This document shows positions 14,348 to 37,007 of a stretch of DNA of 64,000 nucleotides, piece by piece. The stretch covers positions 13,888,001 to 13,952,000 of the forward strand of contig NC_079884.1 in assembly GCF_029227915.1 (NCBI RefSeq). The letters run 5' to 3'. This stretch comes from Hydractinia symbiolongicarpus. Its lineage: Eukaryota; Cnidaria; Hydrozoa; Anthoathecata; Hydractiniidae. Below the pieces are notes generated by a model, which worked only from the letters and a program-made list of their open reading frames with translations, ran no database searches and was not told where the DNA came from. Made by a program: the position numbers and the translations under genes. Positions within the stretch are counted from its first letter, which is position 1; each line of letters opens with the position of its first letter.

Positions 14348-14957
14348 TTAAAGATAATATTATAAGATAAAGCCCAAGATTCACGAATATCTTCAACTTT
14401 ATGACGTGCGTACATACGCCTGTATTTGAAAGGAATCTAACTTCAGCATACAAATGAGAAGCAGTAATCATAGTCACAAAACATTTTGCATCATTGCCTA
14501 TAAAGCCATTGTTAAGTAACTGTATAGGTCACTAAGTTTAAATACTCTTCTAAAGCTATTTTCCTGCGCTGGGGCACCCATTATTATCTTTTGTGCAGTA
14601 TAAGAGGGCCGTCACACGCATAGTATAGATTGCGTAAAAAAAGTGCCCATGGTCGTTCCCTTGTATTTATTTCTCATTTCTATGCACAAACAAAATATGC
14701 GTTACTAGCTTGAAAAGACTACACTATGCAGTTTAAAGTAACCCGCGGCGAACAGTGCAAGTGAGTAATGGAAATACAGTTGACTCCTCCTAATTCGAAT
14801 CTCTATATTTCGAATATTTCTATTATTCGAACGAGTGCTCAGTCACATTCACATGTACGTATAATTTTACGTAAGGCCTTAAAGATAGTATTATGAGAGA
14901 AAGCCCAAGATTCACGAATATCTTCAACTTTATGATGTGCTTACACAAACCTGTATT
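14348..14957. repeat. Pair of ~80-bp direct repeats
   Basis: 14348-14427 and 14879-14957 share AAGCCCAAGATTCACGAATA and the bases following it, with scattered differences. The left end of a pogo/Tigger remnant lies between them. The right-duplication copy is at 36581-37190. Confidence 0.7.
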
Positions 14958-15850
14958 ATTTACGAAAGAAATCTCTCCTTACGTGAGGTTTTGTTCACAT
15001 TTATCTAAACCTCTTACGTAACTCACATAAATTTACTGCATGGTTTTTGTTTTGGTTTATTCTACATGGCAACGATCAAGAAATATCACGTTTTTTTAGC
15101 TGCTCTTTTTTCAAGACGGAGACGTCGCCGTCGTCTAAGAAAAGCAAATAAAACAGGTCTTAAAAAGAGGTCAATGATTAGACCCACAAATCTTGAACTC
15201 GAAATGGTGCCTTCGTCTCAACGTCAATCCGCGTGGCTCTTGTAAAAAACAACATATTTAAAAACGACAGTCGAGAGCTCTTTCTCATTATTAATTTTGA
15301 TTATACTTTGTTTTCGTTTTGACTGAAGGTTTTAAATTGTAGACGTTTAATTATAGAATGAAGTCCTATTGCGCAATTTTTTTCTTATTTTTTAACAAAT
15401 TCAAATGTTTTTTTAAAAATCAAAAATTGTCTTTCGAACGTTATATTTCAAAAGGTTGGTATTTCTACATTTTTTCACTTCTTGATTGAAAATGGCCAAG
15501 AGACAGCAGACCGAGAAAAAGCTGAGACAAAGTGTACAGCTTTGGTCGAGTTGGACAAGGGAAAATAAAATAAATATGTAGCTATGTAGTTATTTGACAT
15601 ACCTCCCAACACACTCTCGACATGGAAGAAAAACTAGAAAAAGATCTTTCATGCTTTCAAAAATCAAAATGCTGGTAAATCAAAGCGTATGAAACAAAAT
15701 ACCTACGATCAACTCAACAAAGAATTTTTGAAATGGTTTACACGTGCTAGAGCTGAAAACGTACCAGTGAGTGGCATCTTTTTCTTTGATGATCAAAGAA
15801 AAAGATCGTCTCCTCAATGTAAAGTAATCAAATATTCAACAGTTTTTCAA
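14775..15850 (+). pseudogene. Pogo/Tigger-type transposon remnant
   Basis: A TA followed by CAGTTGACTCCTCCTAATTC (14777 on) and repeated TTCGAA motifs resemble Tigger-type termini. Downstream, a decayed transposase start is readable from about 15492 (MAKRQQTEKK), followed by frame-shifted HTH pieces. A short open segment (15689-15900) includes ARAENVPVSG, the hallmark of the CENP-B/Tigger DNA-binding region. Stops and frameshifts break it, the DDE part is absent, and no right TIR was found. It is an old insertion with no activity expected. Confidence 0.6.
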
Positions 15851-16328
15851 ACAGAGTTTCTTTTTTATGTCTCTATAATTCGAACAAAAATTTTTCCGCG
15901 TGAACAAACAATTTCTTTACTCATCTCATAAAGTGTAACTAAGCTAAACATTTTCTTAAACCCATTTTTTTTAAATCAAATCCCAAGAGACAGTATCAAA
16001 GGAAAAGTTGTCATGTGTTCTTGCCTCAATGAAAAACAAGAACTTGATCCCAATAACCGATGGTTTGACTTGATAAACTTTCAAAGTTTCACTAAACTGG
16101 ACTTGATTTAGCGTGGTAAAATCTTTCCTGGAATTGATGGAGAGGAAGAGGTACATTATGTATAAGAATAATGAAATTTTCTCAATTTTTGGGTCGAAGG
16201 ACTATTACCAGAATAGTTTTTACATTTTATAAAACTCCACCAACTGTTTTGTATAAAATATGTTTTATACAAAACAGTAGCTTTTTAACATACACCAATA
16301 TTGATTATTATTTTTTTCTAGATTTTAG

Positions 16329-18282
16329 CTACATCGGGTAAAAACGTTTCCCTATATAAAACTTGATCGATTGTGGGGCCGTACTTACGTACAGGACCCT
16401 ATTAGGTAACAGTACCATTTTGTAACTGGTTAGGTAATCCTGTGTAACCTCATCTCCCGAGGTCCCTTCAATCAGTTGCATTTCTTCAGTATGCTGCTTC
16501 CAAAGCTGTTCACAAACTTCATGTTTTTCAGGGGCAGTCACCATGTGAAGAGGATAATGAAACTCGCGACTGCGTATACGAGCTCCATAATTCCACAAGG
16601 AGAGGGTGGCAATTGTCATTGTTTTGTCTTTCGACTCTGGTGCACCATCATCTGCAAATTCAATGACAAAATGGTTTGTATTACCATTGAACCAAAGTAA
16701 TTTATCTTTTAAAGACTTAACTCTTAAATTTAAATCGGCAATCATTGTTACTAAAGCAGTAACTGTACGTGATACCCCACCTTCAACATGATGGATGTCT
16801 CCTATATCCAAAGATTTTACAAAAGAATCAATTGTCCTATCAGATACAGATCTTGTTCTCAGCAAGATGTTATGATCGCCGTATGAAATCAAATTACTTG
16901 AAGAATAATGTTCTGTGAAAGAATGTTTTTGTATCTTACAAAGCATTGTGTACTTTCTTCGTGACATATAATTAAAATACTTTGTTAACACTGCCTTTCG
17001 AATCCCACCTTCACTTCTAGATTGAAGTTCAGAGAATTTTCCAATAAGATTTTCAAGGAATTTTCCTCTCTTGTATGATAAAATGAACTCCTCCATTTGC
17101 TCCTTACTTGCTGTACTTCTTAGGTAGTCCCAAGCACCATAAAGGGAACCGATTTTTCCACCATGAATATATTCGAGTAGACTTTTCGTCTCTTCCCGAC
17201 GTCTATATTTTACAGAATGTGTGGAAGAATTAATCATGTCAGATGTTGTTGGCAAATTTTCACGTCTTTTCCTTGCATAACCTTTCTGCTCAATCAGCAA
17301 TTTTACCTTTTCAAATTCCTCCTGGCATTCTTTAAGTTCCGCCTCTTGGTATTGTTTTCTGTCACTAATCTCTTGAACCTCATTCCTCAAGTCTTCAACA
17401 CTGGATTGACACTCCACCTCTTTTTTCTGCATTTCACCTATATTGGCATTCAGGAGGACCATATCAGAAACTAAAAATATAAAGTTATACACACACCAAA
17501 ATTACACATTATAGAATTATATAAGTATTTTCTTATACATATGTATATGTATATATATACAAACGACAAACATACTAAACTTTGAACTATATATTTTGAT
17601 TCACTTTTCCGTCATGTTTTTCGCTTGTATATATCGTATATAAACATATAACTGTCTCTAATATGTACACTTATCATCCTTTCGGAGCCCCATTAATAGT
17701 TCAACATGTTTAGGCATGAGCCCCCAAAATATACATCCTTGTTAACAAGCCGAAAGGCAAGGTGTACTATCATGGTTCAACATGTTTAGGCACTTAATGA
17801 TAGTGGTACATATATATCATTTTGTATTTAATTTTAAAACAAATAGCTGTGGAAATACATACCTCTTTTTGCATTTTGTTCAGACAAAGACTGGTGTTGT
17901 ATTTTTAACTTCTTTATGTTGCGTGCAATATGAACAGAAGACTTCTTCCAAAAATGAGTCAAAACAAGGCGTTTTTTATCGCAAGGGCCACAGTGTTTCA
18001 ACTTCTTTGAACAGTTTTTCTTCTTGGCACAAAGTCTGAAATTAAAAATATTTTGTCATGAATTGGTTGATGTACTTTGTAAAAATAAACAACCCATTAT
18101 CTAAAATATAAAGATAATGTCTGAATATATGACTCAAAAAACAATTATAACAACCTAGCGCTTCCACTATCTTCATTGTCATCATTTTTAATATCATCAG
18201 TGTTACTCCCCCCACTCTCATCATTTCCAACATTTCCATTATCATCTTTGCAATCAGTTTCATTTGTAGCAGTTTGAACCAT
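16329..18282 (-). pseudogene. Truncated, chimeric transposase gene (copy 1)
   Basis: Exons 18155-18282 and 17863-18035 are intact. Exon 3 starts at 17470 and follows the complete copies through residue 436. At the array edge it runs into foreign sequence, adding 44 unrelated residues before a stop at 16329. It keeps the N-terminal Cys cluster, the coiled coil and the first candidate catalytic Asp pair (D374/D375). It loses D455, E753 and the SAP domain, so it cannot be a functional recombinase. A truncated protein able to bind DNA or partners is possible but only an inference. Confidence 0.85.
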
Positions 18283-19420
18283 TTTAATTTATTTTTCAAT
18301 TATTTACAATAATCACAATATGTCTCTATAATCACACAAGATGAATTATTGTTGTATACTATGTAGGCCTTAAGAGGAACAATAATGATGAATTAAATCC
18401 TGCGATATACAACATTTTTAGCAACCTAATTTGCAAAATTAGATCCCAAAACAAAATTTTTATTTATAATATCTCATAGAAGTTTCTCTCCTAAAAAACA
18501 TACATTGTTCTCTTGCTAACTATACATAGACACATTATTATTCTCTCATCATAGTAGCTATAGCTAGCCATCTTAATTTAATTTCATACATTGTTCGTTT
18601 TTCTATCAAAAAATAACTGGACTAATTCTAATTATATCTGTTAGCTAACTATTCTGCAGTTAATCTAGCTTAATGAATCACTGCATAGCTATATAACATT
18701 AAACACAAAAATCTGTCAGTTTTCTCTCTGCTAACTATACATTTATAATGGCGGAATAGGATAGCTTTGAAATTCATAATGGCTCTCGTGACTCCTTGTT
18801 GCAGGTAATTTCCAAATAAAACTGGCAAGAATCAAAACAGGTATTCGTGAGGCCACAAATCAAAACCAATTCAACTGATATTACAGACACTTGATTAACA
18901 TACGTGAAAGAAATTTTTCAGTTTACAACATGCCAGAAATTCGCATCCGAATCCATACACAGAGCTAACAAACACAAAAAATGGTGTTTTTTGCACGTTT
19001 TAGGTCAAGTTTGTTACTTTAAATGCGACTAATCATGCACATTGTAAAGAGAAAATTAAGATTTTCTCCTGAGCAAACGATCTGGCCACAGCGTACATGG
19101 TTTAGATCAATTACCTTTAGACATGAATGCGAAATATTTTACAGAATGTCTGTTTTACACATTCCTCATTTGAAAACAATGAAAAAAAAGGGTCTGATCT
19201 TGCAGTGATGTTTTATATTGAAACTCCAATCATATATGAATATAAAAAATAAAAACGTACATCGAGCTTGTCAAAATATATCTGCGAATAATACTTTCAA
19301 AAGCTAGGCACTTTTATGGAAAATATCGTAAAACCACGAAATTTGCAGGTTAGTCACGCGGGTGAAGCCCGTTACTATGACGTCACAGTGGGAGAAATTG
19401 TAACAAAAATTACCGCCGTG
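16465..19420 (-). mobile_element. CAC-ended DNA transposon, copy 1, left-truncated
   Basis: This is the right-hand 2.95 kb of the 6,974-bp element. Its right TIR (19390-19420) is intact and abuts the left TIR of the next copy. The left edge falls inside transposase exon 3, where CCT is shared by the element and the adjoining 5.3-kb segment. It contains transposase exons 1, 2 and part of 3 but neither the 225-aa gene nor the left TIR. Confidence 0.9.
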
Positions 19421-19451
19421 CACGGCGGTAATATTCTTTCCATTTTCTCCC
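19390..19451. repeat. TIR-to-TIR joint 1 (right TIR of copy 1, left TIR of copy 2)
   Basis: The right TIR is 19390-19420 and the left TIR 19421-19451. The joint is a 24-bp perfect palindrome made of two facing CACGGCGGTAAT blocks with zero bases between. Inside the TIRs, identity is interrupted at positions 13, 16, 17, 20 and 23, then resumes. A TGACGTCA palindrome (CRE-like) lies just inside the right end at 19378-19385 and may act in promoter or end recognition. Confidence 0.9.
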
Positions 19452-19657
19452 GTTTGCAGAAATTGCGTAACATATTTTTCTCCGAAAAACCGGTAATCGA
19501 TTTTTTCTACAGGTTATTATTTTAAGCGACGAAAATTCATCGGTCCCGTAGCTTCTAAGTAATTGACCTGCATTTTCCGCATTCGTAGTTTTGAAGCGGT
19601 TCATTTTGATTTGTGCTGGCCAGCAGCTAAGTTACTGAAAAGCTATCAAACGCAAGA

Positions 19658-20335
19658 ATGGGTTCTGAACGAAATAGCAATTTCTGGACTGATTTGGAAT
19701 TAAAATTAGGTACCTTCGAGCGCCATTGGTTTAATGATGTAGCAAATGGTGTCGAGAAAGACTATTGTATGAATAGTTCTATGTTATTTGGTGTTGAAAA
19801 ACTGATAGGCAATCACCTTGCCCTTGTAGGCCCCATGATAGATAGTTACTTACGAGAAATAGGTGCACGTATGCTGTCTAAGTTATGCAGGGGTCAGATT
19901 ACTGGCTTAGTTCCTCCAGTTACATTGTTCGTACCTTGGCAGATCATGCGTTACTTAGTCTGTCTTTGCAAAAATTATGGGGCAGAAGTAAAGTGTGTTC
20001 TGCCAAAAAGTAAAAATAAAAAAGGCCAAAAAATAATAATCTTTATAAAAAATGTAGCTAGTGCAGAAAAGATATTTAATCCTGTACGTTTTGATGGGAC
20101 TAACTATCTTGTAAAACGCAAATATCGCAAGGACAAGGATAACATTTTGCAGTACGATGGTATGTCGAATGTTGCTGTTAGTGAATATGCACCAATACGC
20201 CTTGAATATGCACATAGCCATCTGAAAGTGTTGTTTTATATTCAACGGTACACTGCTGATGGCTTCGTTGTTGACACCCATGTGCAGTCATTAATGCTTC
20301 ATTGTGCTCAAACAGTAACAGCAGCAGAAGTATAG
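19658..20335 (+). CDS. Transposon-borne 225-aa protein of unknown function (copy 2)
   Basis: Single-exon gene starting 237 bp inside the left TIR. ATG at 19658, TAG stop ending at 20335, AATAAA at 20378-20383. I do not recognise the family. The product looks globular and mostly helical in its first half (EKLIGNHLALVGPMIDSYLR, then LVPPVTLFVPWQIMRYLVCL). A basic middle follows (LPKSKNKKGQK, KRKYRKDKD) and then a beta-rich end. There is no signal peptide, zinc-binding cluster or kelch-type repeat, so it is not an evident RAG2 homologue. Because it is intact, polyadenylated and convergent with the transposase, it is most likely a second element function (end binding, regulation or a complex partner). 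That role is inferred from context only. Confidence 0.7.
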   Translation: MGSERNSNFWTDLELKLGTFERHWFNDVANGVEKDYCMNSSMLFGVEKLIGNHLALVGPMIDSYLREIGARMLSKLCRGQITGLVPPVTLFVPWQIMRYLVCLCKNYGAEVKCVLPKSKNKKGQKIIIFIKNVASAEKIFNPVRFDGTNYLVKRKYRKDKDNILQYDGMSNVAVSEYAPIRLEYAHSHLKVLFYIQRYTADGFVVDTHVQSLMLHCAQTVTAAEV

Positions 20336-20602
20336 TTAGTATAGCTAAATTGTTCGTAGCTTCACATTTCAAGGAACAATAAATATAGTATATTGTTTGC
20401 ATAGCGTTGCTTATTTATAGCTAGTAGTCATTTAGAAGTTGTAAATTATCTAGTTTGGACCTATGTGAGATCGGCTATTTGAGCTTTATCCAATTTGTTG
20501 TCTACTTATCCATTTTGAAAAAACAATCCTTGTTTGAATTATAAGCTATTTTTTAATAAACTAAAAATATAAATGGCATTTTATATGTAAAAATAAGTTT
20601 TT

Positions 20603-20669
20603 TCCCTGTCCAGGATTCGAACCCAGGTCTCTCATTTGTACGAGTGTCATTCCATTAGACCAACAGGGC
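20603..20669 (-). tRNA. Degenerate tRNA-like sequence inside the transposon (copy 2)
   Basis: On the minus strand it reads CCCTGTTGGTCTAATGG, a short anticodon region, then CTGGGTTCGAATCCTGG and ACAGGG. The A-box-like and B-box (GGTTCGAATCC) promoter motifs, the T arm and six acceptor pairs are recognisable. The anticodon arm is too short and pairs poorly (67 nt in all), so no isotype can be assigned. A tRNA-derived pseudogene or SINE head is the likeliest reading. It lies between the two convergent genes. Confidence 0.55.
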
Positions 20670-21494
20670 GTTAATACAAAAACAATTTTCTAGTTGTACA
20701 GGTTAGTCCAATAAAAGACATTTTTCAATAAATATTTTGTTGAAATTTAGCATTATCATCTAAGGTTTTTGGTACAACAGTACAATGTGTATTTGAAAGT
20801 AAAAAGTAACAACAGGTTGACTGCGCTTAAAAGTAAAAAATACTACATACTGTATTGTCTTTGTTGTTGTTAAATGCTCTTCCAATCTACTAACTACAAC
20901 ACTTTCCGTATCTTAATAAAAACTAATAATCTAAAGTAAACTATATATCTATATATATTACAAGTATCAATTGAAATTTCATTGGAAATTCTGGAACAAA
21001 AAATCAAAGTTGATTGTAATTTTGAAAAAAAGAAAGCTAATAGAACAAATTATATGTACCTTTTGATTTTTAACTACCCTCTGCAATATGCCAGAAGGCT
21101 TGTATAAATATATTCAATATATATTATATACTAACTGTAACATAATTGCAAGGTAGGTGGCATGTGTTAATGTCATATAAATCATTAATTGGGCTATGTG
21201 AACACAACACAACCCAAGGGTTCCTTCTGGTATATACTATTTCACATTTTTATTTACTTATTGAGACAGTAACAGTAGAATTTATAAAAAGCATTCCGAT
21301 CATAAAAATTTATCCTACAAAAAATTGTTTTCTGGTTTCGCAATCAGAAATATATGATTCACAAAAATGTCTTCCCGTAAAAAATTTTTTTTTAGAATAA
21401 AGGAAAAAACATTAAAGGGGTCCCAAAACGAGAAAGGATTTTGAGCTTACGTTGTGGAGCTTAAAAAATTGTCTTTGTTTTCAAGATATTCACC

Positions 21495-21666
21495 TTTTAA
21501 GATTTTTAGTTTTATTATGCTGCATAAATTAATTTAATTTTACTCTATAATATAGTTTGAATCAATGTCCTTTAACAGATCCAAAGTTATTGATGACAGA
21601 AAATATCAAAATTTGCTTAAATGTGACATAATTTATGCAGCATAATTAAATCTAAAAATCTTTAAA
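21495..21666. repeat. Imperfect ~38-bp inverted repeat downstream of the transposase gene
   Basis: Arms at about 21495-21532 and 21628-21666 share AAGATTTTTAG and ATTATGCTGCATAAATTA in opposite orientations, with about 95 bp between. The left arm contains the minus-strand AATAAA (21511-21516), about 180 nt past the transposase stop. It may be a small nested MITE or a 3'-end structure. Confidence 0.7.
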
Positions 21667-21694
21667 TGCAAATAACTTAAAAACAAAATAATGT

Positions 21695-24600
21695 TTATAA
21701 TGTTCCTTCAAGTCGACGAATCAAATCTTCTTTTTTTCCAGTTACTGCCTTCTTGCGTAATTTTAACTCTTCTTTAAGTTGCCCAACAGACATCGATCTT
21801 GGAACCAAATTTTTGTTTGTGGCTGTTTGTTTTTGATGATGTGTTGTTTGGTGTTGATTACACATGTTAATGTCTGAGAAGCGTTCAGAGCAACTGCTAC
21901 ATTGAATAGGCTTTAATATTAAAACCAATTCCTGTGTTAAACATTTTTGATTGACACAAACGAGCAGAGGAAGTGACGAAATACAAACACTGCACAATGT
22001 TTCTGACTCCAAAGGACGGCAGCAATGGCAAGCTTCAATGTCCATAACTGGTTTACGAGACTGATAATGAGAATGGTAATTTGATGGCAGTGGGAAATGA
22101 TATGGCAGGTAAAAATTTCTTACAAAACTTGAACGCATTAATTGATGCCACTTTCCTTTCTCATCTGTAGCTGTTGATCGATTGCTACAGGATTTTAATT
22201 CTTGCTTAATTGAAGAATGTTTCGACTCCTTTCCTTGCATACTGAGTATTCCATAACCAACTCGAAAGTTATTAAAAATTTCTTTGGCATGAAAAGGTAC
22301 CACATATCCCATTGTCCACACAGTAATATTACACCTCAGTGGAAAAAACAGAGAAAATAGATTAAAATACTTTTTACAGAAAAATGAAACATCATCTGGA
22401 TAGGTTTCGTTATTGATATAAACTTTATTAATCAACGATCCAACATCACGCAGTGATATCACAATTTGAGCAAGCGCTAATCTTGTCACAGCTTGTACAT
22501 CGCTTTCACTTTGTAACTTTAGCGTATCCACTAACCTGTGCCCATATTGTGCAAGTAGAATTGCTTGCGCACCAATTAATCGAACTTCAGGGGTTTTCAA
22601 CCTTGAAATATAAAATGGAAACTTATTTTCAATCTGATTGATATTATCTTTTTAGAGCAAATCACAAAAATAAGTTCTGCAAAATTATGTAAAAGTTTAT
22701 CAACAGGAAAATAAAAACTATCCGAATTCAAAGATAAGTTCTGCATTTTTCATAAAAACCTTAATTGCAAAATATGTTTCACGTATATATTGTTTAAAAA
22801 TAGCATAATTTTAAATCAGCTCATGGGAACCTGAATTCTGTTGTGTACTTTGAAGATGTTACCTTTTTTTCTCATCTGCGTAATGTTCCTCAATCATCTT
22901 CCCCACAAACCTCATTCCACAACCACTCATTGCATTATCATTGCTGCATTTCACAGGCGCTTTTAATATGGTGGAGAATTCCCTAAATTTGTTTCGCCGA
23001 ACAGCTTCTTGGTATATAACATTAAGGCAGTGGGTCCAATTGTTTATTTCAAGGTGCAGGGGATCTGGCTTCATACGGTCTGCAAATATGCCAATTCTTG
23101 GCTCTCCAAGTTGCCTTATGCCATTTTCTGCCATAAAAGCCAAGCATTTTTTATGTTTGGTGTCTTTATTAATGCCAGTAGGTAGAGACTTCTCAAAACA
23201 CTGTAGTTTTTCCAGATCCTTTTGGCGGTTTTCATAGTTTGGTACCTGCCACGTTGATTTGGAGTCATAGCCTATCGACCCATCCATTCGTTGCAGCTGA
23301 CTTTTGTGAACGTTACAAAAAGGGGAAGGATAAGTTGCACTTGCAGGTAGTACATTCCCAGCCCAACACAACCAAGCAGTATCACCAGCAGGTACGAATG
23401 AGAATGTAACTTTCTCATCACATATGTTGAAAATATTGCCTTCAATCAGTTGCATTTCTTCAGTATGCTGCTTCCAAAGCTGTTCACAAACTTCATGTTT
23501 TTCAGGGGCAGTCACCATGTGAAGAGGATAATGAAACTCGCGACTGCGTATACGAGCTCCATAATTCCACAAGGAGAGGGTGGCAATTGTCATTGTTTTG
23601 TCTTTCGACTCTGGTGCACCATCATCTGCAAATTCAATGACAAAATGGTTTGTATTACCATTGAACCAAAGTAATTTATCTTTTAAAGACTTAACTCTTA
23701 AATTTAAATCGGCAATCATTGTTACTAAAGCAGTAACTGTACGTGATACCCCACCTTCAACATGATGGATGTCTCCTATATCCAAAGATTTTACAAAAGA
23801 ATCAATTGTCCTATCAGATACAGATCTTGTTCTCAGCAAGATGTTATGATCGCCGTATGAAATCAAATTACTTGAAGAATAATGTTCTGTGAAAGAATGT
23901 TTTTGTATCTTACAAAGCATTGTGTACTTTCTTCGTGACATATAATTAAAATACTTTGTTAACACTGCCTTTCGAATCCCACCTTCACTTCTAGATTGAA
24001 GTTCAGAGAATTTTCCAATAAGATTTTCAAGGAATTTTCCTCTCTTGTATGATAAAATGAACTCCTCCATTTGCTCCTTACTTGCTGTACTTCTTAGGTA
24101 GTCCCAAGCACCATAAAGGGAACCGATTTTTCCACCATGAATATATTCGAGTAGACTTTTCGTCTCTTCCCGACGTCTATATTTTACAGAATGTGTGGAA
24201 GAATTAATCATGTCAGATGTTGTTGGCAAATTTTCACGTCTTTTCCTTGCATAACCTTTCTGCTCAATCAGCAATTTTACCTTTTCAAATTCCTCCTGGC
24301 ATTCTTTAAGTTCCGCCTCTTGGTATTGTTTTCTGTCACTAATCTCTTGAACCTCATTCCTCAAGTCTTCAACACTGGATTGACACTCCACCTCTTTTTT
24401 CTGCATTTCACCTATATTGGCATTCAGGAGGACCATATCAGAAACTAAAAATATAAAGTTATACACACACCAAAATTACACATTATAGAATTATATAAGT
24501 ATTTTCTTATACATATGTATATGTATATATATACAAACGACAAACATACTAAACTTTGAACTATATATTTTGATTCACTTTTCCGTCATGTTTTTCGCTT

Positions 24601-25256
24601 GTATATATCGTATATAAACATATAACTGTCTCTAATATGTACACTTATCATCCTTTCGGAGCCCCATTAATAGTTCAACATGTTTAGGCATGAGCCCCCA
24701 AAATATACATCCTTGTTAACAAGCCGAAAGGCAAGGTGTACTATCATGGTTCAACATGTTTAGGCACTTAATGATAGTGGTACATATATATCATTTTGTA
24801 TTTAATTTTAAAACAAATAGCTGTGGAAATACATACCTCTTTTTGCATTTTGTTCAGACAAAGACTGGTGTTGTATTTTTAACTTCTTTATGTTGCGTGC
24901 AATATGAACAGAAGACTTCTTCCAAAAATGAGTCAAAACAAGGCGTTTTTTATCGCAAGGGCCACAGTGTTTCAACTTCTTTGAACAGTTTTTCTTCTTG
25001 GCACAAAGTCTGAAATTAAAAATATTTTGTCATGAATTGGTTGATGTACTTTGTAAAAATAAACAACCCATTATCTAAAATATAAAGATAATGTCTGAAT
25101 ATATGACTCAAAAAACAATTATAACAACCTAGCGCTTCCACTATCTTCATTGTCATCATTTTTAATATCATCAGTGTTACTCCCCCCACTCTCATCATTT
25201 CCAACATTTCCATTATCATCTTTGCAATCAGTTTCATTTGTAGCAGTTTGAACCAT
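21695..25256 (-). CDS. Candidate DDE transposase/recombinase, four exons, 929 aa (copy 2)
   Basis: Exons are 25129-25256, 24837-25009, 22863-24444 and 21695-22601 (TAA stop), all GT-AG with phases closing to 930 codons. Order: acidic start; C45-x5-C51-x6-C58-x2-C61 cluster in a basic stretch; coiled coil about 104-163; FADDGAP with D374/D375; PAGDTAWL with D455; FCNVH (C477, H480); DPLHLEIN (561-568); SMQGKESKH with E753 and H756; a Cys/His-rich region 819-883; SAP-like helix pair about 896-926. This spacing suits an RNase H-fold DDE enzyme with a large insertion before the Glu, and resembles the order in RAG1. I recognise similar uncharacterised, expanded proteins from cnidarians. The catalytic assignment is inference. 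SAP and Cys/His modules are DNA-binding types. Confidence 0.75.
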
Positions 25257-26363
25257 TTTAATTTATTTTTCAATTATTTACAATAATCACAATATGTCTC
25301 TATAATCACACAAGATGAATTATTGTTGTATACTATGTAGGCCTTAAGAGGAACAATAATGATGAATTAAATCCTGCGATATACAACATTTTTAGCAACC
25401 TAATTTGCAAAATTAGATCCCAAAACAAAATTTTTATTTATAATATCTCATAGAAGTTTCTCTCCTAAAAAACATACATTGTTCTCTTGCTAACTATACA
25501 TAGACACATTATTATTCTCTCATCATAGTAGCTATAGCTAGCCATCTTAATTTAATTTCATACATTGTTCGTTTTTCTATCAAAAAATAACTGGACTAAT
25601 TCTAATTATATCTGTTAGCTAACTATTCTGCAGTTAATCTAGCTTAATGAATCACTGCATAGCTATATAACATTAAACACAAAAATCTGTCAGTTTTCTC
25701 TCTGCTAACTATACATTTATAATGGCGGAATAGGATAGCTTTGAAATTCATAATGGCTCTCGTGACTCCTTGTTGCAGGTAATTTCCAAATAAAACTGGC
25801 AAGAATCAAAACAGGTATTCGTGAGGCCACAAATCAAAACCAATTCAACTGATATTACAGACACTTGATTAACATACGTGAAAGAAATTTTTCAGTTTAC
25901 AACATGCCAGAAATTCGCATCCGAATCCATACACAGAGCTAACAAACACAAAAAATGGTGTTTTTTGCACGTTTTAGGTCAAGTTTGTTACTTTAAATGC
26001 GACTAATCATGCACATTGTAAAGAGAAAATTAAGATTTTCTCCTGAGCAAACGATCTGGCCACAGCGTACATGGTTTAGATCAATTACCTTTAGACATGA
26101 ATGCGAAATATTTTACAGAATGTCTGTTTTACACATTCCTCATTTGAAAACAATGAAAAAAAAGGGTCTGATCTTGCAGTGATGTTTTATATTGAAACTC
26201 CAATCATATATGAATATAAAAAATAAAAACGTACATCGAGCTTGTCAAAATATATCTGCGAATAATACTTTCAAAAGCTAGGCACTTTTATGGAAAATAT
26301 CGTAAAACCACGAAATTTGCAGGTTAGTCACGCGGGTGAAGCCCGTTACTATGACGTCACAGT

Positions 26364-26425
26364 GGGAGAAATTGTAACAAAAATTACCGCCGTGCACGGC
26401 GGTAATATTCTTTCCATTTTCTCCC
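26364..26425. repeat. TIR-to-TIR joint 2 (right TIR of copy 2, left TIR of copy 3)
   Basis: Identical to joint 1, with the point of contact between 26394 and 26395. Two identical seamless joints show that the whole array is built from end-joined whole elements rather than separate insertions. Confidence 0.9.
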
Positions 26426-26631
26426 GTTTGCAGAAATTGCGTAACATATTTTTCTCCGAAAAACCGGTAATCGATTTTTTCTACAGGTTATTATTTTAAG
26501 CGACGAAAATTCATCGGTCCCGTAGCTTCTAAGTAATTGACCTGCATTTTCCGCATTCGTAGTTTTGAAGCGGTTCATTTTGATTTGTGCTGGCCAGCAG
26601 CTAAGTTACTGAAAAGCTATCAAACGCAAGA

Positions 26632-27309
26632 ATGGGTTCTGAACGAAATAGCAATTTCTGGACTGATTTGGAATTAAAATTAGGTACCTTCGAGCGCCAT
26701 TGGTTTAATGATGTAGCAAATGGTGTCGAGAAAGACTATTGTATGAATAGTTCTATGTTATTTGGTGTTGAAAAACTGATAGGCAATCACCTTGCCCTTG
26801 TAGGCCCCATGATAGATAGTTACTTACGAGAAATAGGTGCACGTATGCTGTCTAAGTTATGCAGGGGTCAGATTACTGGCTTAGTTCCTCCAGTTACATT
26901 GTTCGTACCTTGGCAGATCATGCGTTACTTAGTCTGTCTTTGCAAAAATTATGGGGCAGAAGTAAAGTGTGTTCTGCCAAAAAGTAAAAATAAAAAAGGC
27001 CAAAAAATAATAATCTTTATAAAAAATGTAGCTAGTGCAGAAAAGATATTTAATCCTGTACGTTTTGATGGGACTAACTATCTTGTAAAACGCAAATATC
27101 GCAAGGACAAGGATAACATTTTGCAGTACGATGGTATGTCGAATGTTGCTGTTAGTGAATATGCACCAATACGCCTTGAATATGCACATAGCCATCTGAA
27201 AGTGTTGTTTTATATTCAACGGTACACTGCTGATGGCTTCGTTGTTGACACCCATGTGCAGTCATTAATGCTTCATTGTGCTCAAACAGTAACAGCAGCA
27301 GAAGTATAG
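26632..27309 (+). CDS. Transposon-borne 225-aa protein of unknown function (copy 3)
   Basis: Same coding sequence as 19658-20335, encoding an identical protein, 237 bp from the left TIR of copy 3. Its polyadenylation signal is at 27352-27357. The first 26 bases upstream of its element are the right TIR of copy 2, so its promoter could draw on sequence from both abutting units. Confidence 0.7.
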   Translation: MGSERNSNFWTDLELKLGTFERHWFNDVANGVEKDYCMNSSMLFGVEKLIGNHLALVGPMIDSYLREIGARMLSKLCRGQITGLVPPVTLFVPWQIMRYLVCLCKNYGAEVKCVLPKSKNKKGQKIIIFIKNVASAEKIFNPVRFDGTNYLVKRKYRKDKDNILQYDGMSNVAVSEYAPIRLEYAHSHLKVLFYIQRYTADGFVVDTHVQSLMLHCAQTVTAAEV

Positions 27310-27576
27310 TTAGTATAGCTAAATTGTTCGTAGCTTCACATTTCAAGGAACAATAAATATAGTATATTGTTTGCATAGCGTTGCTTATTTATAGCTAGTA
27401 GTCATTTAGAAGTTGTAAATTATCTAGTTTGGACCTATGTGAGATCGGCTATTTGAGCTTTATCCAATTTGTTGTCTACTTATCCATTTTGAAAAAACAA
27501 TCCTTGTTTGAATTATAAGCTATTTTTTAATAAACTAAAAATATAAATGGCATTTTATATGTAAAAATAAGTTTTT

Positions 27577-27643
27577 TCCCTGTCCAGGATTCGAACCCAG
27601 GTCTCTCATTTGTACGAGTGTCATTCCATTAGACCAACAGGGC
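27577..27643 (-). tRNA. Degenerate tRNA-like sequence inside the transposon (copy 3)
   Basis: Identical to 20603-20669, carried with the element. Confidence 0.55.
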
Positions 27644-28468
27644 GTTAATACAAAAACAATTTTCTAGTTGTACAGGTTAGTCCAATAAAAGACATTTTTC
27701 AATAAATATTTTGTTGAAATTTAGCATTATCATCTAAGGTTTTTGGTACAACAGTACAATGTGTATTTGAAAGTAAAAAGTAACAACAGGTTGACTGCGC
27801 TTAAAAGTAAAAAATACTACATACTGTATTGTCTTTGTTGTTGTTAAATGCTCTTCCAATCTACTAACTACAACACTTTCCGTATCTTAATAAAAACTAA
27901 TAATCTAAAGTAAACTATATATCTATATATATTACAAGTATCAATTGAAATTTCATTGGAAATTCTGGAACAAAAAATCAAAGTTGATTGTAATTTTGAA
28001 AAAAAGAAAGCTAATAGAACAAATTATATGTACCTTTTGATTTTTAACTACCCTCTGCAATATGCCAGAAGGCTTGTATAAATATATTCAATATATATTA
28101 TATACTAACTGTAACATAATTGCAAGGTAGGTGGCATGTGTTAATGTCATATAAATCATTAATTGGGCTATGTGAACACAACACAACCCAAGGGTTCCTT
28201 CTGGTATATACTATTTCACATTTTTATTTACTTATTGAGACAGTAACAGTAGAATTTATAAAAAGCATTCCGATCATAAAAATTTATCCTACAAAAAATT
28301 GTTTTCTGGTTTCGCAATCAGAAATATATGATTCACAAAAATGTCTTCCCGTAAAAAATTTTTTTTTAGAATAAAGGAAAAAACATTAAAGGGGTCCCAA
28401 AACGAGAAAGGATTTTGAGCTTACGTTGTGGAGCTTAAAAAATTGTCTTTGTTTTCAAGATATTCACC

Positions 28469-28640
28469 TTTTAAGATTTTTAGTTTTATTATGCTGCATA
28501 AATTAATTTAATTTTACTCTATAATATAGTTTGAATCAATGTCCTTTAACAGATCCAAAGTTATTGATGACAGAAAATATCAAAATTTGCTTAAATGTGA
28601 CATAATTTATGCAGCATAATTAAATCTAAAAATCTTTAAA
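28469..28640. repeat. Imperfect inverted repeat, copy 3
   Basis: Copy of 21495-21666 in the next unit, again overlapping the probable polyadenylation signal. Confidence 0.7.
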
Positions 28641-28668
28641 TGCAAATAACTTAAAAACAAAATAATGT

Positions 28669-31600
28669 TTATAATGTTCCTTCAAGTCGACGAATCAAAT
28701 CTTCTTTTTTTCCAGTTACTGCCTTCTTGCGTAATTTTAACTCTTCTTTAAGTTGCCCAACAGACATCGATCTTGGAACCAAATTTTTGTTTGTGGCTGT
28801 TTGTTTTTGATGATGTGTTGTTTGGTGTTGATTACACATGTTAATGTCTGAGAAGCGTTCAGAGCAACTGCTACATTGAATAGGCTTTAATATTAAAACC
28901 AATTCCTGTGTTAAACATTTTTGATTGACACAAACGAGCAGAGGAAGTGACGAAATACAAACACTGCACAATGTTTCTGACTCCAAAGGACGGCAGCAAT
29001 GGCAAGCTTCAATGTCCATAACTGGTTTACGAGACTGATAATGAGAATGGTAATTTGATGGCAGTGGGAAATGATATGGCAGGTAAAAATTTCTTACAAA
29101 ACTTGAACGCATTAATTGATGCCACTTTCCTTTCTCATCTGTAGCTGTTGATCGATTGCTACAGGATTTTAATTCTTGCTTAATTGAAGAATGTTTCGAC
29201 TCCTTTCCTTGCATACTGAGTATTCCATAACCAACTCGAAAGTTATTAAAAATTTCTTTGGCATGAAAAGGTACCACATATCCCATTGTCCACACAGTAA
29301 TATTACACCTCAGTGGAAAAAACAGAGAAAATAGATTAAAATACTTTTTACAGAAAAATGAAACATCATCTGGATAGGTTTCGTTATTGATATAAACTTT
29401 ATTAATCAACGATCCAACATCACGCAGTGATATCACAATTTGAGCAAGCGCTAATCTTGTCACAGCTTGTACATCGCTTTCACTTTGTAACTTTAGCGTA
29501 TCCACTAACCTGTGCCCATATTGTGCAAGTAGAATTGCTTGCGCACCAATTAATCGAACTTCAGGGGTTTTCAACCTTGAAATATAAAATGGAAACTTAT
29601 TTTCAATCTGATTGATATTATCTTTTTAGAGCAAATCACAAAAATAAGTTCTGCAAAATTATGTAAAAGTTTATCAACAGGAAAATAAAAACTATCCGAA
29701 TTCAAAGATAAGTTCTGCATTTTTCATAAAAACCTTAATTGCAAAATATGTTTCACGTATATATTGTTTAAAAATAGCATAATTTTAAATCAGCTCATGG
29801 GAACCTGAATTCTGTTGTGTACTTTGAAGATGTTACCTTTTTTTCTCATCTGCGTAATGTTCCTCAATCATCTTCCCCACAAACCTCATTCCACAACCAC
29901 TCATTGCATTATCATTGCTGCATTTCACAGGCGCTTTTAATATGGTGGAGAATTCCCTAAATTTGTTTCGCCGAACAGCTTCTTGGTATATAACATTAAG
30001 GCAGTGGGTCCAATTGTTTATTTCAAGGTGCAGGGGATCTGGCTTCATACGGTCTGCAAATATGCCAATTCTTGGCTCTCCAAGTTGCCTTATGCCATTT
30101 TCTGCCATAAAAGCCAAGCATTTTTTATGTTTGGTGTCTTTATTAATGCCAGTAGGTAGAGACTTCTCAAAACACTGTAGTTTTTCCAGATCCTTTTGGC
30201 GGTTTTCATAGTTTGGTACCTGCCACGTTGATTTGGAGTCATAGCCTATCGACCCATCCATTCGTTGCAGCTGACTTTTGTGAACGTTACAAAAAGGGGA
30301 AGGATAAGTTGCACTTGCAGGTAGTACATTCCCAGCCCAACACAACCAAGCAGTATCACCAGCAGGTACGAATGAGAATGTAACTTTCTCATCACATATG
30401 TTGAAAATATTGCCTTCAATCAGTTGCATTTCTTCAGTATGCTGCTTCCAAAGCTGTTCACAAACTTCATGTTTTTCAGGGGCAGTCACCATGTGAAGAG
30501 GATAATGAAACTCGCGACTGCGTATACGAGCTCCATAATTCCACAAGGAGAGGGTGGCAATTGTCATTGTTTTGTCTTTCGACTCTGGTGCACCATCATC
30601 TGCAAATTCAATGACAAAATGGTTTGTATTACCATTGAACCAAAGTAATTTATCTTTTAAAGACTTAACTCTTAAATTTAAATCGGCAATCATTGTTACT
30701 AAAGCAGTAACTGTACGTGATACCCCACCTTCAACATGATGGATGTCTCCTATATCCAAAGATTTTACAAAAGAATCAATTGTCCTATCAGATACAGATC
30801 TTGTTCTCAGCAAGATGTTATGATCGCCGTATGAAATCAAATTACTTGAAGAATAATGTTCTGTGAAAGAATGTTTTTGTATCTTACAAAGCATTGTGTA
30901 CTTTCTTCGTGACATATAATTAAAATACTTTGTTAACACTGCCTTTCGAATCCCACCTTCACTTCTAGATTGAAGTTCAGAGAATTTTCCAATAAGATTT
31001 TCAAGGAATTTTCCTCTCTTGTATGATAAAATGAACTCCTCCATTTGCTCCTTACTTGCTGTACTTCTTAGGTAGTCCCAAGCACCATAAAGGGAACCGA
31101 TTTTTCCACCATGAATATATTCGAGTAGACTTTTCGTCTCTTCCCGACGTCTATATTTTACAGAATGTGTGGAAGAATTAATCATGTCAGATGTTGTTGG
31201 CAAATTTTCACGTCTTTTCCTTGCATAACCTTTCTGCTCAATCAGCAATTTTACCTTTTCAAATTCCTCCTGGCATTCTTTAAGTTCCGCCTCTTGGTAT
31301 TGTTTTCTGTCACTAATCTCTTGAACCTCATTCCTCAAGTCTTCAACACTGGATTGACACTCCACCTCTTTTTTCTGCATTTCACCTATATTGGCATTCA
31401 GGAGGACCATATCAGAAACTAAAAATATAAAGTTATACACACACCAAAATTACACATTATAGAATTATATAAGTATTTTCTTATACATATGTATATGTAT
31501 ATATATACAAACGACAAACATACTAAACTTTGAACTATATATTTTGATTCACTTTTCCGTCATGTTTTTCGCTTGTATATATCGTATATAAACATATAAC

Positions 31601-32230
31601 TGTCTCTAATATGTACACTTATCATCCTTTCGGAGCCCCATTAATAGTTCAACATGTTTAGGCATGAGCCCCCAAAATATACATCCTTGTTAACAAGCCG
31701 AAAGGCAAGGTGTACTATCATGGTTCAACATGTTTAGGCACTTAATGATAGTGGTACATATATATCATTTTGTATTTAATTTTAAAACAAATAGCTGTGG
31801 AAATACATACCTCTTTTTGCATTTTGTTCAGACAAAGACTGGTGTTGTATTTTTAACTTCTTTATGTTGCGTGCAATATGAACAGAAGACTTCTTCCAAA
31901 AATGAGTCAAAACAAGGCGTTTTTTATCGCAAGGGCCACAGTGTTTCAACTTCTTTGAACAGTTTTTCTTCTTGGCACAAAGTCTGAAATTAAAAATATT
32001 TTGTCATGAATTGGTTGATGTACTTTGTAAAAATAAACAACCCATTATCTAAAATATAAAGATAATGTCTGAATATATGACTCAAAAAACAATTATAACA
32101 ACCTAGCGCTTCCACTATCTTCATTGTCATCATTTTTAATATCATCAGTGTTACTCCCCCCACTCTCATCATTTCCAACATTTCCATTATCATCTTTGCA
32201 ATCAGTTTCATTTGTAGCAGTTTGAACCAT
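28669..32230 (-). CDS. Candidate DDE transposase/recombinase, four exons, 929 aa (copy 3)
   Basis: Exons are 32103-32230, 31811-31983, 29837-31418 and 28669-29575. The predicted protein is identical to the copy at 21695-25256, so both full-length genes are intact and the array is young. The gene begins about 1.1 kb inside the right TIR of its element and converges on the 225-aa gene at 26632-27309. Confidence 0.75.
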
Positions 32231-33337
32231 TTTAATTTATTTTTCAATTATTTACAATAATCACAATATGTCTCTATAATCACACAAGATGAATTATTGT
32301 TGTATACTATGTAGGCCTTAAGAGGAACAATAATGATGAATTAAATCCTGCGATATACAACATTTTTAGCAACCTAATTTGCAAAATTAGATCCCAAAAC
32401 AAAATTTTTATTTATAATATCTCATAGAAGTTTCTCTCCTAAAAAACATACATTGTTCTCTTGCTAACTATACATAGACACATTATTATTCTCTCATCAT
32501 AGTAGCTATAGCTAGCCATCTTAATTTAATTTCATACATTGTTCGTTTTTCTATCAAAAAATAACTGGACTAATTCTAATTATATCTGTTAGCTAACTAT
32601 TCTGCAGTTAATCTAGCTTAATGAATCACTGCATAGCTATATAACATTAAACACAAAAATCTGTCAGTTTTCTCTCTGCTAACTATACATTTATAATGGC
32701 GGAATAGGATAGCTTTGAAATTCATAATGGCTCTCGTGACTCCTTGTTGCAGGTAATTTCCAAATAAAACTGGCAAGAATCAAAACAGGTATTCGTGAGG
32801 CCACAAATCAAAACCAATTCAACTGATATTACAGACACTTGATTAACATACGTGAAAGAAATTTTTCAGTTTACAACATGCCAGAAATTCGCATCCGAAT
32901 CCATACACAGAGCTAACAAACACAAAAAATGGTGTTTTTTGCACGTTTTAGGTCAAGTTTGTTACTTTAAATGCGACTAATCATGCACATTGTAAAGAGA
33001 AAATTAAGATTTTCTCCTGAGCAAACGATCTGGCCACAGCGTACATGGTTTAGATCAATTACCTTTAGACATGAATGCGAAATATTTTACAGAATGTCTG
33101 TTTTACACATTCCTCATTTGAAAACAATGAAAAAAAAGGGTCTGATCTTGCAGTGATGTTTTATATTGAAACTCCAATCATATATGAATATAAAAAATAA
33201 AAACGTACATCGAGCTTGTCAAAATATATCTGCGAATAATACTTTCAAAAGCTAGGCACTTTTATGGAAAATATCGTAAAACCACGAAATTTGCAGGTTA
33301 GTCACGCGGGTGAAGCCCGTTACTATGACGTCACAGT

Positions 33338-33368
33338 GGGAGAAATTGTAACAAAAATTACCGCCGTG
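33338..33368. repeat. Right terminal inverted repeat facing host DNA
   Basis: 31-bp right TIR of copy 3. It is the only element end in the window that touches non-element DNA. Confidence 0.9.
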
Positions 33369-35000
33369 CGAGATATTTTTCACGCCTCCGTTTTTGGGGG
33401 CCGCGGCCGAGGAGGGATGTTGGAGTGTTTGCCCCAGCTGTTCAAATTTATATTTTACTTTTTACTAACAAACTTTAACCTTTAATAAGTATTTATCATA
33501 TACCTATCATACTTTCATCAAGCAGGACGTTGATACGCAAAGAGCTAACCAATGTCCTAGCAAAGTTTTCATTTTTGACTTTATACGAAGAGGTGTTTAA
33601 TTCAATAATAAGCTTTTTAAAACTTTACTTGGTTTACTTCGTGTAACATACTCTTTTGCTCGTTTGACCAGCATGGCATCTGAATAGCTAAGAAGAACGT
33701 TCAAAAGTTATGCCATTGCATCAGTTTCGGATAGTTACATTCGCTTTTTCTACGGTAGGAAATGTAATATGTCATTCTAATGCAAATGTTGACAATGTTG
33801 CACAAATAATTTATTTCATTTTCAGTAGAAAAAAACTGCAGTAAGGGCTTATCCAAATACACCACATGCACCCCTACTGAAATTAACATAGTACTAATAA
33901 CCCGTCAGGGATCCGGCATAAATGTTCATGAATTATTTTAACTCACGTTGGTTTCGAAACCCACAGTTAATTTAAATATTACTAACTTTTTGGTGTACAG
34001 AGCTTCTCTACCGCTAACAGAATAGAGTTGTGTCTCGTTGTGACGCTCTTCTTCCAAACCTATCAAACATGCACGGCCACGCATACATGACAAAGCGCGT
34101 TTGAGAGTCGCACAATTTCAAGAGCCCGTCGTTTTTAGGATGGAATCCCCAAAGAAGTTTAACTTTCCTTTACGAATTTCCTTTATTGTTATACTTTTGT
34201 ATTTAATAACCTCACTGATGTCATCAGAAAAATTTAGTCCATTGGAGAAAGGGTAATTTAGCGACAAGAATTGCAAGTCCACCAATGAATTCCATCAGCA
34301 TCGCCCTCGCGCAAGTTCCACAACCATAAGACTCTGATTGTTTTCTAGCGACGTGTTCTCCGCGCCGTCTGGGATTTAAAAAAAGGAAAGAATTATCCTG
34401 GGAACGAGGTTTGTATCCATCTTGAAAGTATGACTTGCTCGTATACCAGAGCAATGTTACATAACTCAACACGAATAATTATGGATTGACTTATGGAAAA
34501 ATCTACTTAACTAGGTAATCAATAAGTAACATAAATTTTGATGATGTTGTAAATGACCACCCGTCCATATACCCAGAGACATTTTAACATAAACTGCAAG
34601 GATTGCATTATCGTTCCCAAAGTTCTTTGAGTAAAATCTCCTGCGAGGATTGCTTTTATGTGGAACTACATCTACATCTTATTAAAAGCAAAAATTCATA
34701 TTAGTAGAGCTATGTACATACGTTCTGAATGTTTTGTCTATTAATTTCCCATAATTCTCCGATCCAGATATTTGCAGCGAGTCGTCAGGACCCTTTTGTG
34801 TTTCCGATAAACTGACACTTTATTGGGACTTAAGGTTACCCTGGTGGTTCCTTTTGCGATTTGATTATGTTTTGGGTTTTTTGTAATTGATTTTGCCTTT
34901 CATTTTTACTTGACTTATTGCTAGCCGCCAAAGAAATTGCATTCTTCGTAGCATGGGAGGTTTTATCTCTCGATGTGGGAAAATATATACACATTGACTC

Positions 35001-35082
35001 AACTTCGACCCCAGGATCTTGTGGCCCCTAAGCCGTTATTAATTACGCATCAATAAGGCAAAATTCCCTGGAAACGAGGTGG
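35001..35082 (-). mobile_element. Small palindromic element, right-duplication copy
   Basis: Copy of 12768-12849 carried by the 5.3-kb duplication, with no independent insertion. Confidence 0.5.
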
Positions 35083-36070
35083 ACATTGACTTGATGTTTT
35101 ATAATTATATATAAATGGCTTTCTATCCACTTTTGTGCACTTTACCATTCATTCAGAAAAAATGTTGTTAAAGTAAAAAATGCGTCATAGGTATAGCCTT
35201 TGGAAAATTAGTAATCTTCGTAGCCACCTTCATTTTCAAAATATACCTATTAATAAATTTTAATTTTTGTTTTTTAAAAGTTATTTAGGATGACTGAATC
35301 GTTCCCAGGGCTTTTCATCTCCCAACGGCACTGTGCTAATGCCAGACTAGGCGAAGAGATCTATCAAAAAAAGCAACAGTGATAGAATTAAAAGGATGTA
35401 CCTGATAAGTTTTAACAAGTTTGATACTACTGATTTTGATGCAACAAAGTTCTCCGCAGTTCCCACCAGGAGGTTCCCCAAGGCAAAATCTATGTTTGTT
35501 TAGTCCAACATTTCGTTTTTGTTGCTTACGAATACTCTTTTAACCGCGAAAAATAGTTACAAAATGGTAGCCGTGTTGATATCAACCTCGTCCTCATGAC
35601 TATTAACAGTGCTGCTCTTTTTGATAGTTTTAGCGCTTTCACACGGTAAGCTAGGGTCGAGCTGGTATCGGTATAGTAGCGGGATATGTAGCAAAGAGGT
35701 CGTACTTTGAAGTAGATGTGAATTAAATAGTCTGATCATCAAAATTTACTTGGAACTAGACATATCTCTCGAAAATAGGATAGATCCGCTCTTCGTACCG
35801 GATTTTTTTTGACAACTCTTTTTTGGTATGCTGTATGGCGATGAAACTTACTGACTTTATATTTATTAGACACCTCTATCTTAAGTTTGGTACAGGCCTG
35901 TTGGACTTAACGTGCACTAAACACTCGAAATGTAGATGAATCGACTTGACCCTTTACTTGACCGTGAGCTCGAATAGAATTTTCATATTCTTGTCTCTTA
36001 TTATCCACGATACAACATATGGATTGGGTAAAATAAAAACAAACTATTCTGTATTACATGCTGCTGGTGT

Positions 36071-36168
36071 TCTGTATTACACGCGGATTCTGTATCACCG
36101 CGGAGTATTACAAGCGCAGTCTGTATTACACGCGGATTCTGTATCACCGCGGAGTATTACACGTGGAC
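36071..36168. repeat. Two-copy 49-bp tandem repeat, right-duplication copy
   Basis: Same structure as 13838-13935, carried by the duplication. Confidence 0.8.
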
Positions 36169-37007
36169 GTACAAATACGTAGTTCGTAGTTTCAATATCA
36201 AGTCCATATATGGTAAACAGTACTAACAACCATCTGGGCTAGAAAACAGTTGTCCTCCATGAGCCAAATTGGAGTGCGTATGCTATTTTCCAGCAGGAAA
36301 AACCGTGATGGTCGAAATATCTGTTCTGCGTTCGTCAAAGATGCCGATTCTTCTCCACTTGTGATCCTTTTGCTCCGGTGTTTGCATAAAGAGAAGAAAA
36401 TAAGTTATAAATATTGTATAAAGTCAGTTAAACGATGATGTGTCGTCTCTGTTTTGTAACACAGAAAAGAGACTGTGAACGATTACTTAGTTCTTTTTTT
36501 AACCATTGGAACCTAATTTTACGGACGACGAAGACGCTTATTGTATACCCGTCAAGAAAATAATTATCTTTAGAGCAAGTTTAAAGATAATATTATAAGA
36601 TAAAGCCCAAGATTCACGAATATCTTCAACTTTATGACGTGCGTACATACGCCTGTATTTGAAAGGAATCTAACTTCAGCATACAAATGAGAAGCAGTAA
36701 TCATAGTCACAAAACATTTTGCATCATTGCCTATAAAGCCATTGTTAAGTAACTGTATAGGTCACTAAGTTTAAATACTCTTCTAAAGCTATTTTCCTGC
36801 GCTGGGGCACCCATTATTATCTTTTGTGCAGTATAAGAGGGCCGTCACACGCATAGTATAGATTGCGTAAAAAAAGTGCCCATGGTCGTTCCCTTGTATT
36901 TATTTCTCATTTCTATGCACAAACAAAATATGCGTTACTAGCTTGAAAAGACTACACTATGCAGTTTAAAGTAACCCGCGGCGAACAGTGCAAGTGAGTA
37001 ATGGAAA

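What the first reader, a model, noticed from the sequence alone, without database searches (positions are those of the whole stretch)
16465..33369. Tandem transposon array with seamless TIR-to-TIR joints
The 6,974-bp unit has 31-bp TIRs beginning CACGGCGGTAAT. At 19420/19421 and 26394/26395 two units meet with zero bases between their ends, making a 24-bp palindrome. Independent insertions would leave host bases or a target duplication at each border. Precise end-to-end joints are what an excised, circularised element would give, comparable to the signal joints made by RAG recombinase. A head-to-tail array could then arise by rolling-circle copying, by joining of circles, or by unequal crossing-over from a first joint.
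Basis: partly seen in the sequence, partly recalled or inferred. Interest (0 to 1): 0.9.

Follow-up and report, generated by a model that had tools for sequence, protein, structure and literature searches.

The report
Seamless tandem array of RAG-fold transposons
In the genome of a colonial hydroid, copies of a jumping gene whose enzyme family is predicted to share the core shape of the antibody-gene recombinase RAG1 sit end to end with no bases between them, which may be the mark of an excised circle put back into the chromosome, although one side of the array looks rearranged and needs checking in raw reads.

The parts
11136..16464 (.). Empty insertion site (CGA GATAT...) and 5.3 kb of its right flank ('A'), first copy
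   Evidence: Identical to 33369-38697 except 1 SNP at 13360/35593; the flank to its left (10336-11135) has one full match in the genome, this one
16465..19420 (+). Right-end fragment of the element (last 2,956 bp), joined to A at 16464/16465 by a junction with 3-bp microhomology (CCT)
19409..19432 (.). Zero-base TIR-TIR joint 1 (24-bp palindrome)
19421..26394 (+). Full unit 1, 6,974 bp, CAC...GTG ends, imperfect 31-bp TIRs
   Evidence: ends shared by single copies
26383..26406 (.). Zero-base TIR-TIR joint 2
26395..33368 (+). Full unit 2, identical to unit 1; its right TIR abuts CGAGATAT, the empty-site sequence
33369..38697 (.). Right flank copy 2 (A'), starting with the inferred 3-bp target CGA
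21695..25256 (-). Transposase gene of unit 1 (predicted): exons 25256-25129, 25009-24837, 24444-22863, 22601-21695; 929 aa; inferred DDE residues D375, D455, E753; C-terminal zinc-finger region and SAP domain. Repeated at +6974 in unit 2
   Evidence: Gene model with GT-AG introns; SAP; homologues; fold of the homologue P0007; conservation
19658..20335 (+). Second gene of unit 1, 225 aa, convergent with the transposase gene; unknown function. Repeated at +6974 in unit 2
   Evidence: 18 homologues, the two named ones from corals, alignment; no Pfam hit; no fold match at E<=0.001

Best explanation
SHOWN: a recently active DNA transposon of 6,974 bp with CAC...GTG ends, 3-bp target duplications, a predicted 929-aa transposase and a second convergent gene. 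Its family's transposase has a RAG1/Transib-type predicted fold. INFERRED: at this one site a single founder was amplified locally. A RAG-like transposase cleaves exactly at the element ends; two blunt ends of an excised copy were fused without loss (a signal joint, normally on a 6,974-bp circle); and that joined molecule went back into the resident copy by homology (recombination or copying round the circle), giving head-to-tail units with seamless joints. The adjoining 22-kb rearrangement (empty site + 5.3-kb flank, then a 3-bp-microhomology jump into mid-element) is best read as template switching during repair of an excision gap, with the polymerase entering the element, or its circle, at a random internal point. 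The direction and order of these last steps are speculative.
Against: No circle, read or excision product was seen. In hAT elements perfect joins are a minority of circles. The left border of the array is missing, so the prediction that separates circle insertion from self-insertion cannot be read. The A/Upart junction may be an assembly error. Arrays of coral CMITEs, apparently including one without gaps, were put down to replication slippage. RAG1 kinship rests on a predicted structure of a Hydra homologue (mean pLDDT 77.5, pTM 0.67) and on modest whole-chain TM-scores (0.38 by query, 0.52 by target for the best Foldseek hit), not on sequence: the exon-3 profile found no RAG1 or Transib among PDB sequences, and Pfam RAG1 had 0 matches in the genome, though that search also rang in none of its 14 controls.
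Confidence: 0.42

Rival explanations
1. Self-insertion. A locally excised copy inserts into the left end of the resident copy with the resident's own terminal CAC as 3-bp target. The duplication rebuilds CAC, so the new joint is seamless (host-CAC-U-U), and an extra CAC is left only at the outer left border. Unequal crossing-over adds further units.
For: The target duplication is 3 bp without obvious consensus (GCT, AAT, TAG, ACG, TTA, TAC), and the TIR starts CAC, so the arithmetic works exactly. It needs no circle. A transposase bound at a resident end could attract insertions (inference). The private SNP also fits a local donor.
Against: It must hit one exact base pair. Insertion at the right end would have left an extra GTG; the right border is clean, CCGTG|CGAGATAT, so only left-end insertion remains possible. 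No other such pair was found in the genome.
Confidence: 0.2
2. Assembly mosaic. The contig joins an empty allele (left flank + A) to a filled allele (U...U + A' + right flank); the 22-kb duplication, the partial first unit and perhaps the unit count are artefacts.
For: The layout is exactly empty site then filled site. The left flank has one full match in the assembly. HiFi read N50 is 13.2 kb (PMC10411563), shorter than the 16.9-kb array.
Against: A and A' differ by 1 SNP and no gap in 5,332 bp, whereas the species' heterozygosity is estimated at 1.33% (PMC11067881); about 71 differences would be expected, P(<=1) about 1e-29 if uniform. A homozygous tract or a somatic mosaic could still explain this. 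Overlap assemblers do not normally join at 3 bp of homology (general knowledge), and the window holds no N.
Confidence: 0.25
3. Ordinary replication error. Slippage, template switching or unequal crossing-over made the first head-to-tail dimer by chance exactly at the ends, helped by the palindromic TIRs, with no transposase-made joint.
For: Tandem arrays of full coral CMITEs were put down to replication slippage; of two pictured examples one has gaps between the elements, so the other apparently has none (PMC2872659). The same paper recalls large tandem arrays of autonomous piggyBac elements.
Against: The two TIRs are inverted, so homologous exchange between them cannot give head-to-tail units; a chance event would have to fall on the exact end bases (inference).
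Confidence: 0.13

Closest known systems
RAG1/RAG2, RAG-like (BbRAGL) and Transib transposons
   Different: 3-bp instead of 5-bp target duplication; no RAG1 similarity found by sequence; second protein is 225 aa with no fold match (RAG2 as a large Kelch protein is recalled); C-terminal zinc-finger region and SAP domain. Gene layout here is convergent, as recalled for ProtoRAG; the starfish TransibSU pair is head-to-head (PMC4411706)
EnSpm/CACTA within the CMCT clade (PMC12730594)
   Same: 5'-CAC...GTG-3' ends and 3-bp target duplications, the features that paper used to call elements EnSpm
   Different: [quoted passage not shown] no EnSpm model among the Pfam matches of P0007; the published HSymV2.0 repeat table lists 0 En-Spm
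hAT episomes (hobo, Hermes; PMC2803484)
   Same: Cut-and-paste elements whose excised ends join, sometimes perfectly, and whose circles can re-integrate
Coral CMITE tandem arrays, and piggyBac arrays cited with them (PMC2872659)
   Same: Head-to-tail arrays of full DNA-transposon copies in a cnidarian, one pictured array apparently without gaps
   Different: Small non-coding, piggyBac-related elements, not a 7-kb element with its own RAG-fold transposase; array formation put down to slippage

Membership tests
RAG1/Transib | RAG1-type RNase-H core with long insertion between second D and E | tested here: met
   [not shown]
RAG1/Transib | 5-bp target duplication | tested here: not met
   3 bp in 7 of 8 copies, 2 bp in the eighth; 5 bp called typical of Transibs in PMC4411706
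RAG1/Transib | RAG1 sequence profile (PF12940) | tested here: inconclusive
   0 matches in the genome, but the 14 control genomes also gave 0; no RAG1 in the rows shown for the 39 members of A1 (first 25 of 81 families)
CMCT clade (EnSpm, Mirage, Chapaev, Transib, RAG1) | C(2)C and H(3-4)H motifs between second D and E | tested here: not met
   Among 39 aligned sequences the only C columns conserved above 80% in that interval are 568 and 662 (P0007 numbering), and no conserved H pair has the spacing; in four sequences scanned by pattern CxxC occurs only after E712 or not at all
CMCT clade | CA..TG ends in most cases, 2-5 bp duplications | tested here: met
   CACGGCGG...CCGCCGTG, 3 bp; definition read
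EnSpm/CACTA | CAC...GTG ends with 3-bp duplication | tested here: met
EnSpm/CACTA | Recognisable EnSpm transposase | tested here: inconclusive
   P0007 matches only SAP, C2H2 fingers and two weak unrelated models at E<=10; Repbase was not available
hAT | 8-bp target duplication (5-7 bp in some lineages) | tested here: not met
   3 bp
PIF/Harbinger | Harbinger-type transposase (3-bp duplication is shared) | tested here: inconclusive
   3 bp is shared; no Harbinger model among the 5 Pfam matches of P0007
Signal-joint circle origin | Extrachromosomal 6,974-bp circle with the same joint | not testable with these tools
   No reads available

The most novel reading that the evidence does not exclude
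The array is a chromosomal record of signal joints: an animal transposon with a RAG1-type transposase, outside the known RAG/Transib lineages (3-bp duplications, no C(2)C/H(3-4)H motif in the core), excises with exact ends, fuses them without loss as V(D)J recombination does, and its joined circles return to the germline. Precise signal-joint formation and re-use would then be an ancestral property of the RAG fold, older than bilaterian RAG.
Probability: 0.28. Interest if true: 0.82.

Novelty: new variant of a known kind. Interest (0 to 1): 0.6.

Why it matters
RAG recombinase came from a transposon, and signal joints were long treated as a by-product. A young, apparently intact RAG-fold element in a laboratory cnidarian, with end-to-end joints fixed in its chromosome, would let one test directly whether precise joint formation and circle re-integration are old properties of this enzyme fold. 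It also points to a cnidarian transposase group that Pfam knew, in the members scanned, mainly by the SAP domain (33 of 39), in a genome where 48% of sequence is unclassified repeat (PMC10411563).

Tried and rejected
Considered and rejected. (1) The C8 pair (L013/L014, 24 kb apart) as a second false or true duplication: both lie in a ~203-bp satellite, so it says nothing about assembly quality. (2) Spacer-containing joints: the gapped-pattern search did not complete, but the 8 full right ends outside the array were read and none is followed by a left end in the 2 to 5 kb of right flank fetched. (3) RAG2 as the second protein: no fold match for the ORF2 model at E<=0.001 (mean pLDDT 67). (4) Sequence-level link to RAG1: PDB profile searches gave only zinc-finger and SAP proteins in the rows shown (best 60 of 183, full alignment) and one unrelated weak hit (exon-3 alignment). 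(5) Transposition-linked re-replication (PMC4270019; only abstract and section list seen): the breakpoint lies inside the element, not at a TIR, so it fits poorly. (6) Whether other families ending in CACGGCGG have joints: the 16-bp pattern search did not complete.

Limits: the flank table covers the 8 copies with a full right end that one search listed (the tool calls its counts lower bounds). The 12 truncated or divergent left-end copies fetched (L016-L027) have no full right end in that list and were not counted for target duplications; further left-end pieces were not fetched. Position 6748 was typed in 4 of the 8 outside copies; the other four lacked the exact 14-base anchor. The structure model is of the Hydra homologue P0007, not of the window protein. 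On re-checking I lowered the best explanation from 0.45 to 0.42 and the novel case from 0.30 to 0.28, and raised slippage from 0.10 to 0.13, because PMC2872659 apparently pictures a gap-free array.

Papers: PMC2803484, PMC4411706, PMC10411563, PMC11067881: passages found by term; PMC12730594: passages and section 16; PMC2872659: abstract and two sections; PMC4270019: abstract and section list. PMC3093488 is not held. Statements on what is or is not in print rest on searches of an open-licence library (two were about the species' genome).
Full report
WHAT IS THERE. The window is G000:C10:13888001-13952000 of a 481-Mb genome in 76 contigs. Two units, 19421-26394 and 26395-33368, are identical over 6,974 bp, and 16465-19420 equals the last 2,956 bp of the unit. 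The two joints contain no extra base and form a 24-bp palindrome. In the whole genome that palindrome was found at these 2 places only, with up to 3 mismatches allowed.

The 5.3 kb to the left of the array (11136-16467) is repeated to its right (33369-38700) with one mismatch and no gap. At 11135/11136 the left flank runs straight into CGAGATAT; at 33368/33369 the right TIR runs into the same CGAGATAT. So 11136 marks the empty target and 33369 the filled one, with CGA as the inferred 3-bp target. The contig reads: left flank - empty site with 5,329 bp of right flank (A) - jump at 16464/16465 into unit position 4019 with 3 bp of microhomology - rest of unit - unit - unit - A' - right flank. The left border of the array is absent. 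A 1,600-base probe across 11136 found the left flank in full once and the start of A twice, all here, besides two partial matches of about 40-60 bases elsewhere.

THE ELEMENT ELSEWHERE. A left-end probe found 41 matching pieces and a right-end probe 14; the tool calls such counts lower bounds. Outside the array 8 copies have a full right end; all 8 were read and all stop at the same place as the units at the joints, one (L012) with two changed bases in its right end. Seven of the 8 have a 3-bp target duplication (GCT, AAT, TAG, ACG, TTA twice, TAC); the eighth, internally deleted, has only 2 matching bases. Two of them (L013, L014) share one flank inside a ~203-bp satellite, so there are 7 independent sites and 6 with the duplication. 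Two outside copies differ from the array unit by 1 and 2 bases in 6,974, so the family moved recently. The array copies carry C at unit position 6748; the 4 outside copies that could be typed there, of 8, have G. The array therefore most likely grew from one founder on the spot.

SPECIES AND ASSEMBLY. The translated ORF of a related element in this genome is 100% identical, over 99% of its length, to a protein named Hydractinia symbiolongicarpus LOC130628799 (P0140). Contig C1 is 42,572,105 bp, exactly the longest scaffold of HSymV2.0, built with hifiasm from HiFi reads (66x, N50 13.2 kb) of clone 291-10 (PMC10411563). The totals differ (480,894,487 bases in 76 contigs here; 482,928,323 in 84 there), so this is probably a revised version of that assembly. 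Heterozygosity of H. symbiolongicarpus was estimated at 1.33% (PMC11067881). A and A' differ at 1 of 5,332 positions; two ordinary alleles should differ at about 71. That argues against a plain mosaic of two haplotypes, but a homozygous tract or a somatic mosaic within one haplotype would escape the argument. No reads were available.

A SECOND FAMILY. One search lists 20 places with an 803-aa open frame matching at 26% identity over residues 63-794 of P0007. The two that were read differ little from each other and end in ...CCCGCCGTG; the left end was not reached. The terminal CACGGCGG is thus shared between strongly diverged transposases.

HOW IT PROBABLY AROSE. Three facts carry the argument: exact ends, zero-base joints, and one local founder. 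A RAG-type enzyme is expected (knowledge of RAG and Transib, recalled) to leave blunt, exact element ends whose fusion is a signal joint. Perfect end-to-end circles are documented for hAT elements, where they are a minority: 2 of 26 and 3 of 60 Hermes episomes, and 3 of the 15 intact episomes from plasmid-injected embryos (PMC2803484). One such circle, returned to the resident copy by homology, gives a head-to-tail dimer with a seamless joint; another round, copying round the circle, or unequal crossing-over gives more. The jump from A into mid-unit fits template switching during gap repair; 3 bp of microhomology or more is met in 7.1% of random pairs, so it is suggestive only. Right-end self-insertion is excluded because no extra GTG lies at 33368/33369. 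The left border would decide, and it is missing. Replication slippage has been proposed for tandem coral CMITEs, one of whose pictured arrays apparently has no gaps (PMC2872659).

MEMBERSHIP. By ends and duplication length the element would be called EnSpm/CACTA in the scheme of PMC12730594. By fold it stands with RAG1 and Transib. It fails two features that were tested: Transib's 5-bp duplication (3 bp here) and the C(2)C/H(3-4)H motif given for the whole CMCT clade. I therefore describe it as a RAG1-fold, CMCT-like element and do not file it as a Transib or as an EnSpm. The published repeat table of HSymV2.0 lists 0 En-Spm.

VERDICT. A real and striking arrangement in a young RAG-fold transposon; partly supported interpretation; an unresolved left side that only raw reads can settle.

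Noticed in passing
L037, L038 (C6:3768806-3771055, C11:3454799-3457048) and 18 further places: A second family with an 803-aa intronless transposase-like ORF, about 26% identical to the Hydra homologue of the window family; the two copies read are 99.8% identical over 4.75 kb and end ...CCCGCCGTG; the left end was not reached.
   Followed up: partly
G000:C1:28.50-28.55 Mb and 30.81-30.84 Mb (L019-L025), also L018: Clusters of copies about 87-88% identical at the left end; L019-L025 share an identical 40-base left flank (L018 differs at 2 bases), so they were amplified together with host DNA. Chromosome 1 is called the likely sex chromosome in PMC10411563.
   Followed up: partly
G000:C8:420485-454489 (L014, L031, L032, L013): Long satellite with a ~203-bp period holding two shortened copies of the element 24 kb apart.
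   Followed up: partly
window 19658-20335: Conserved second protein of the element, 225 aa; some homologues carry the precomputed label PF26709, and the one of these scanned (P0125) matched nothing in the Pfam copy used; no fold match.
   Followed up: partly
window 8774-8908: An inverted repeat with arms of about 65 bases and a 5-base loop (long hairpin).
   Followed up: no
window 39978-40111, 40735-40803, 60027-60135, 60606-60728: Another dispersed inverted-repeat family (GTCTGTCTGTC..., CCCGTGGATTTTTCCACGGG), perhaps a small non-autonomous element.
   Followed up: no
window 51321-52568 and 2799-3602: Open frames matching an amiloride-sensitive sodium channel (ASC, E 1e-54) and a RasGEF domain.
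   Followed up: no
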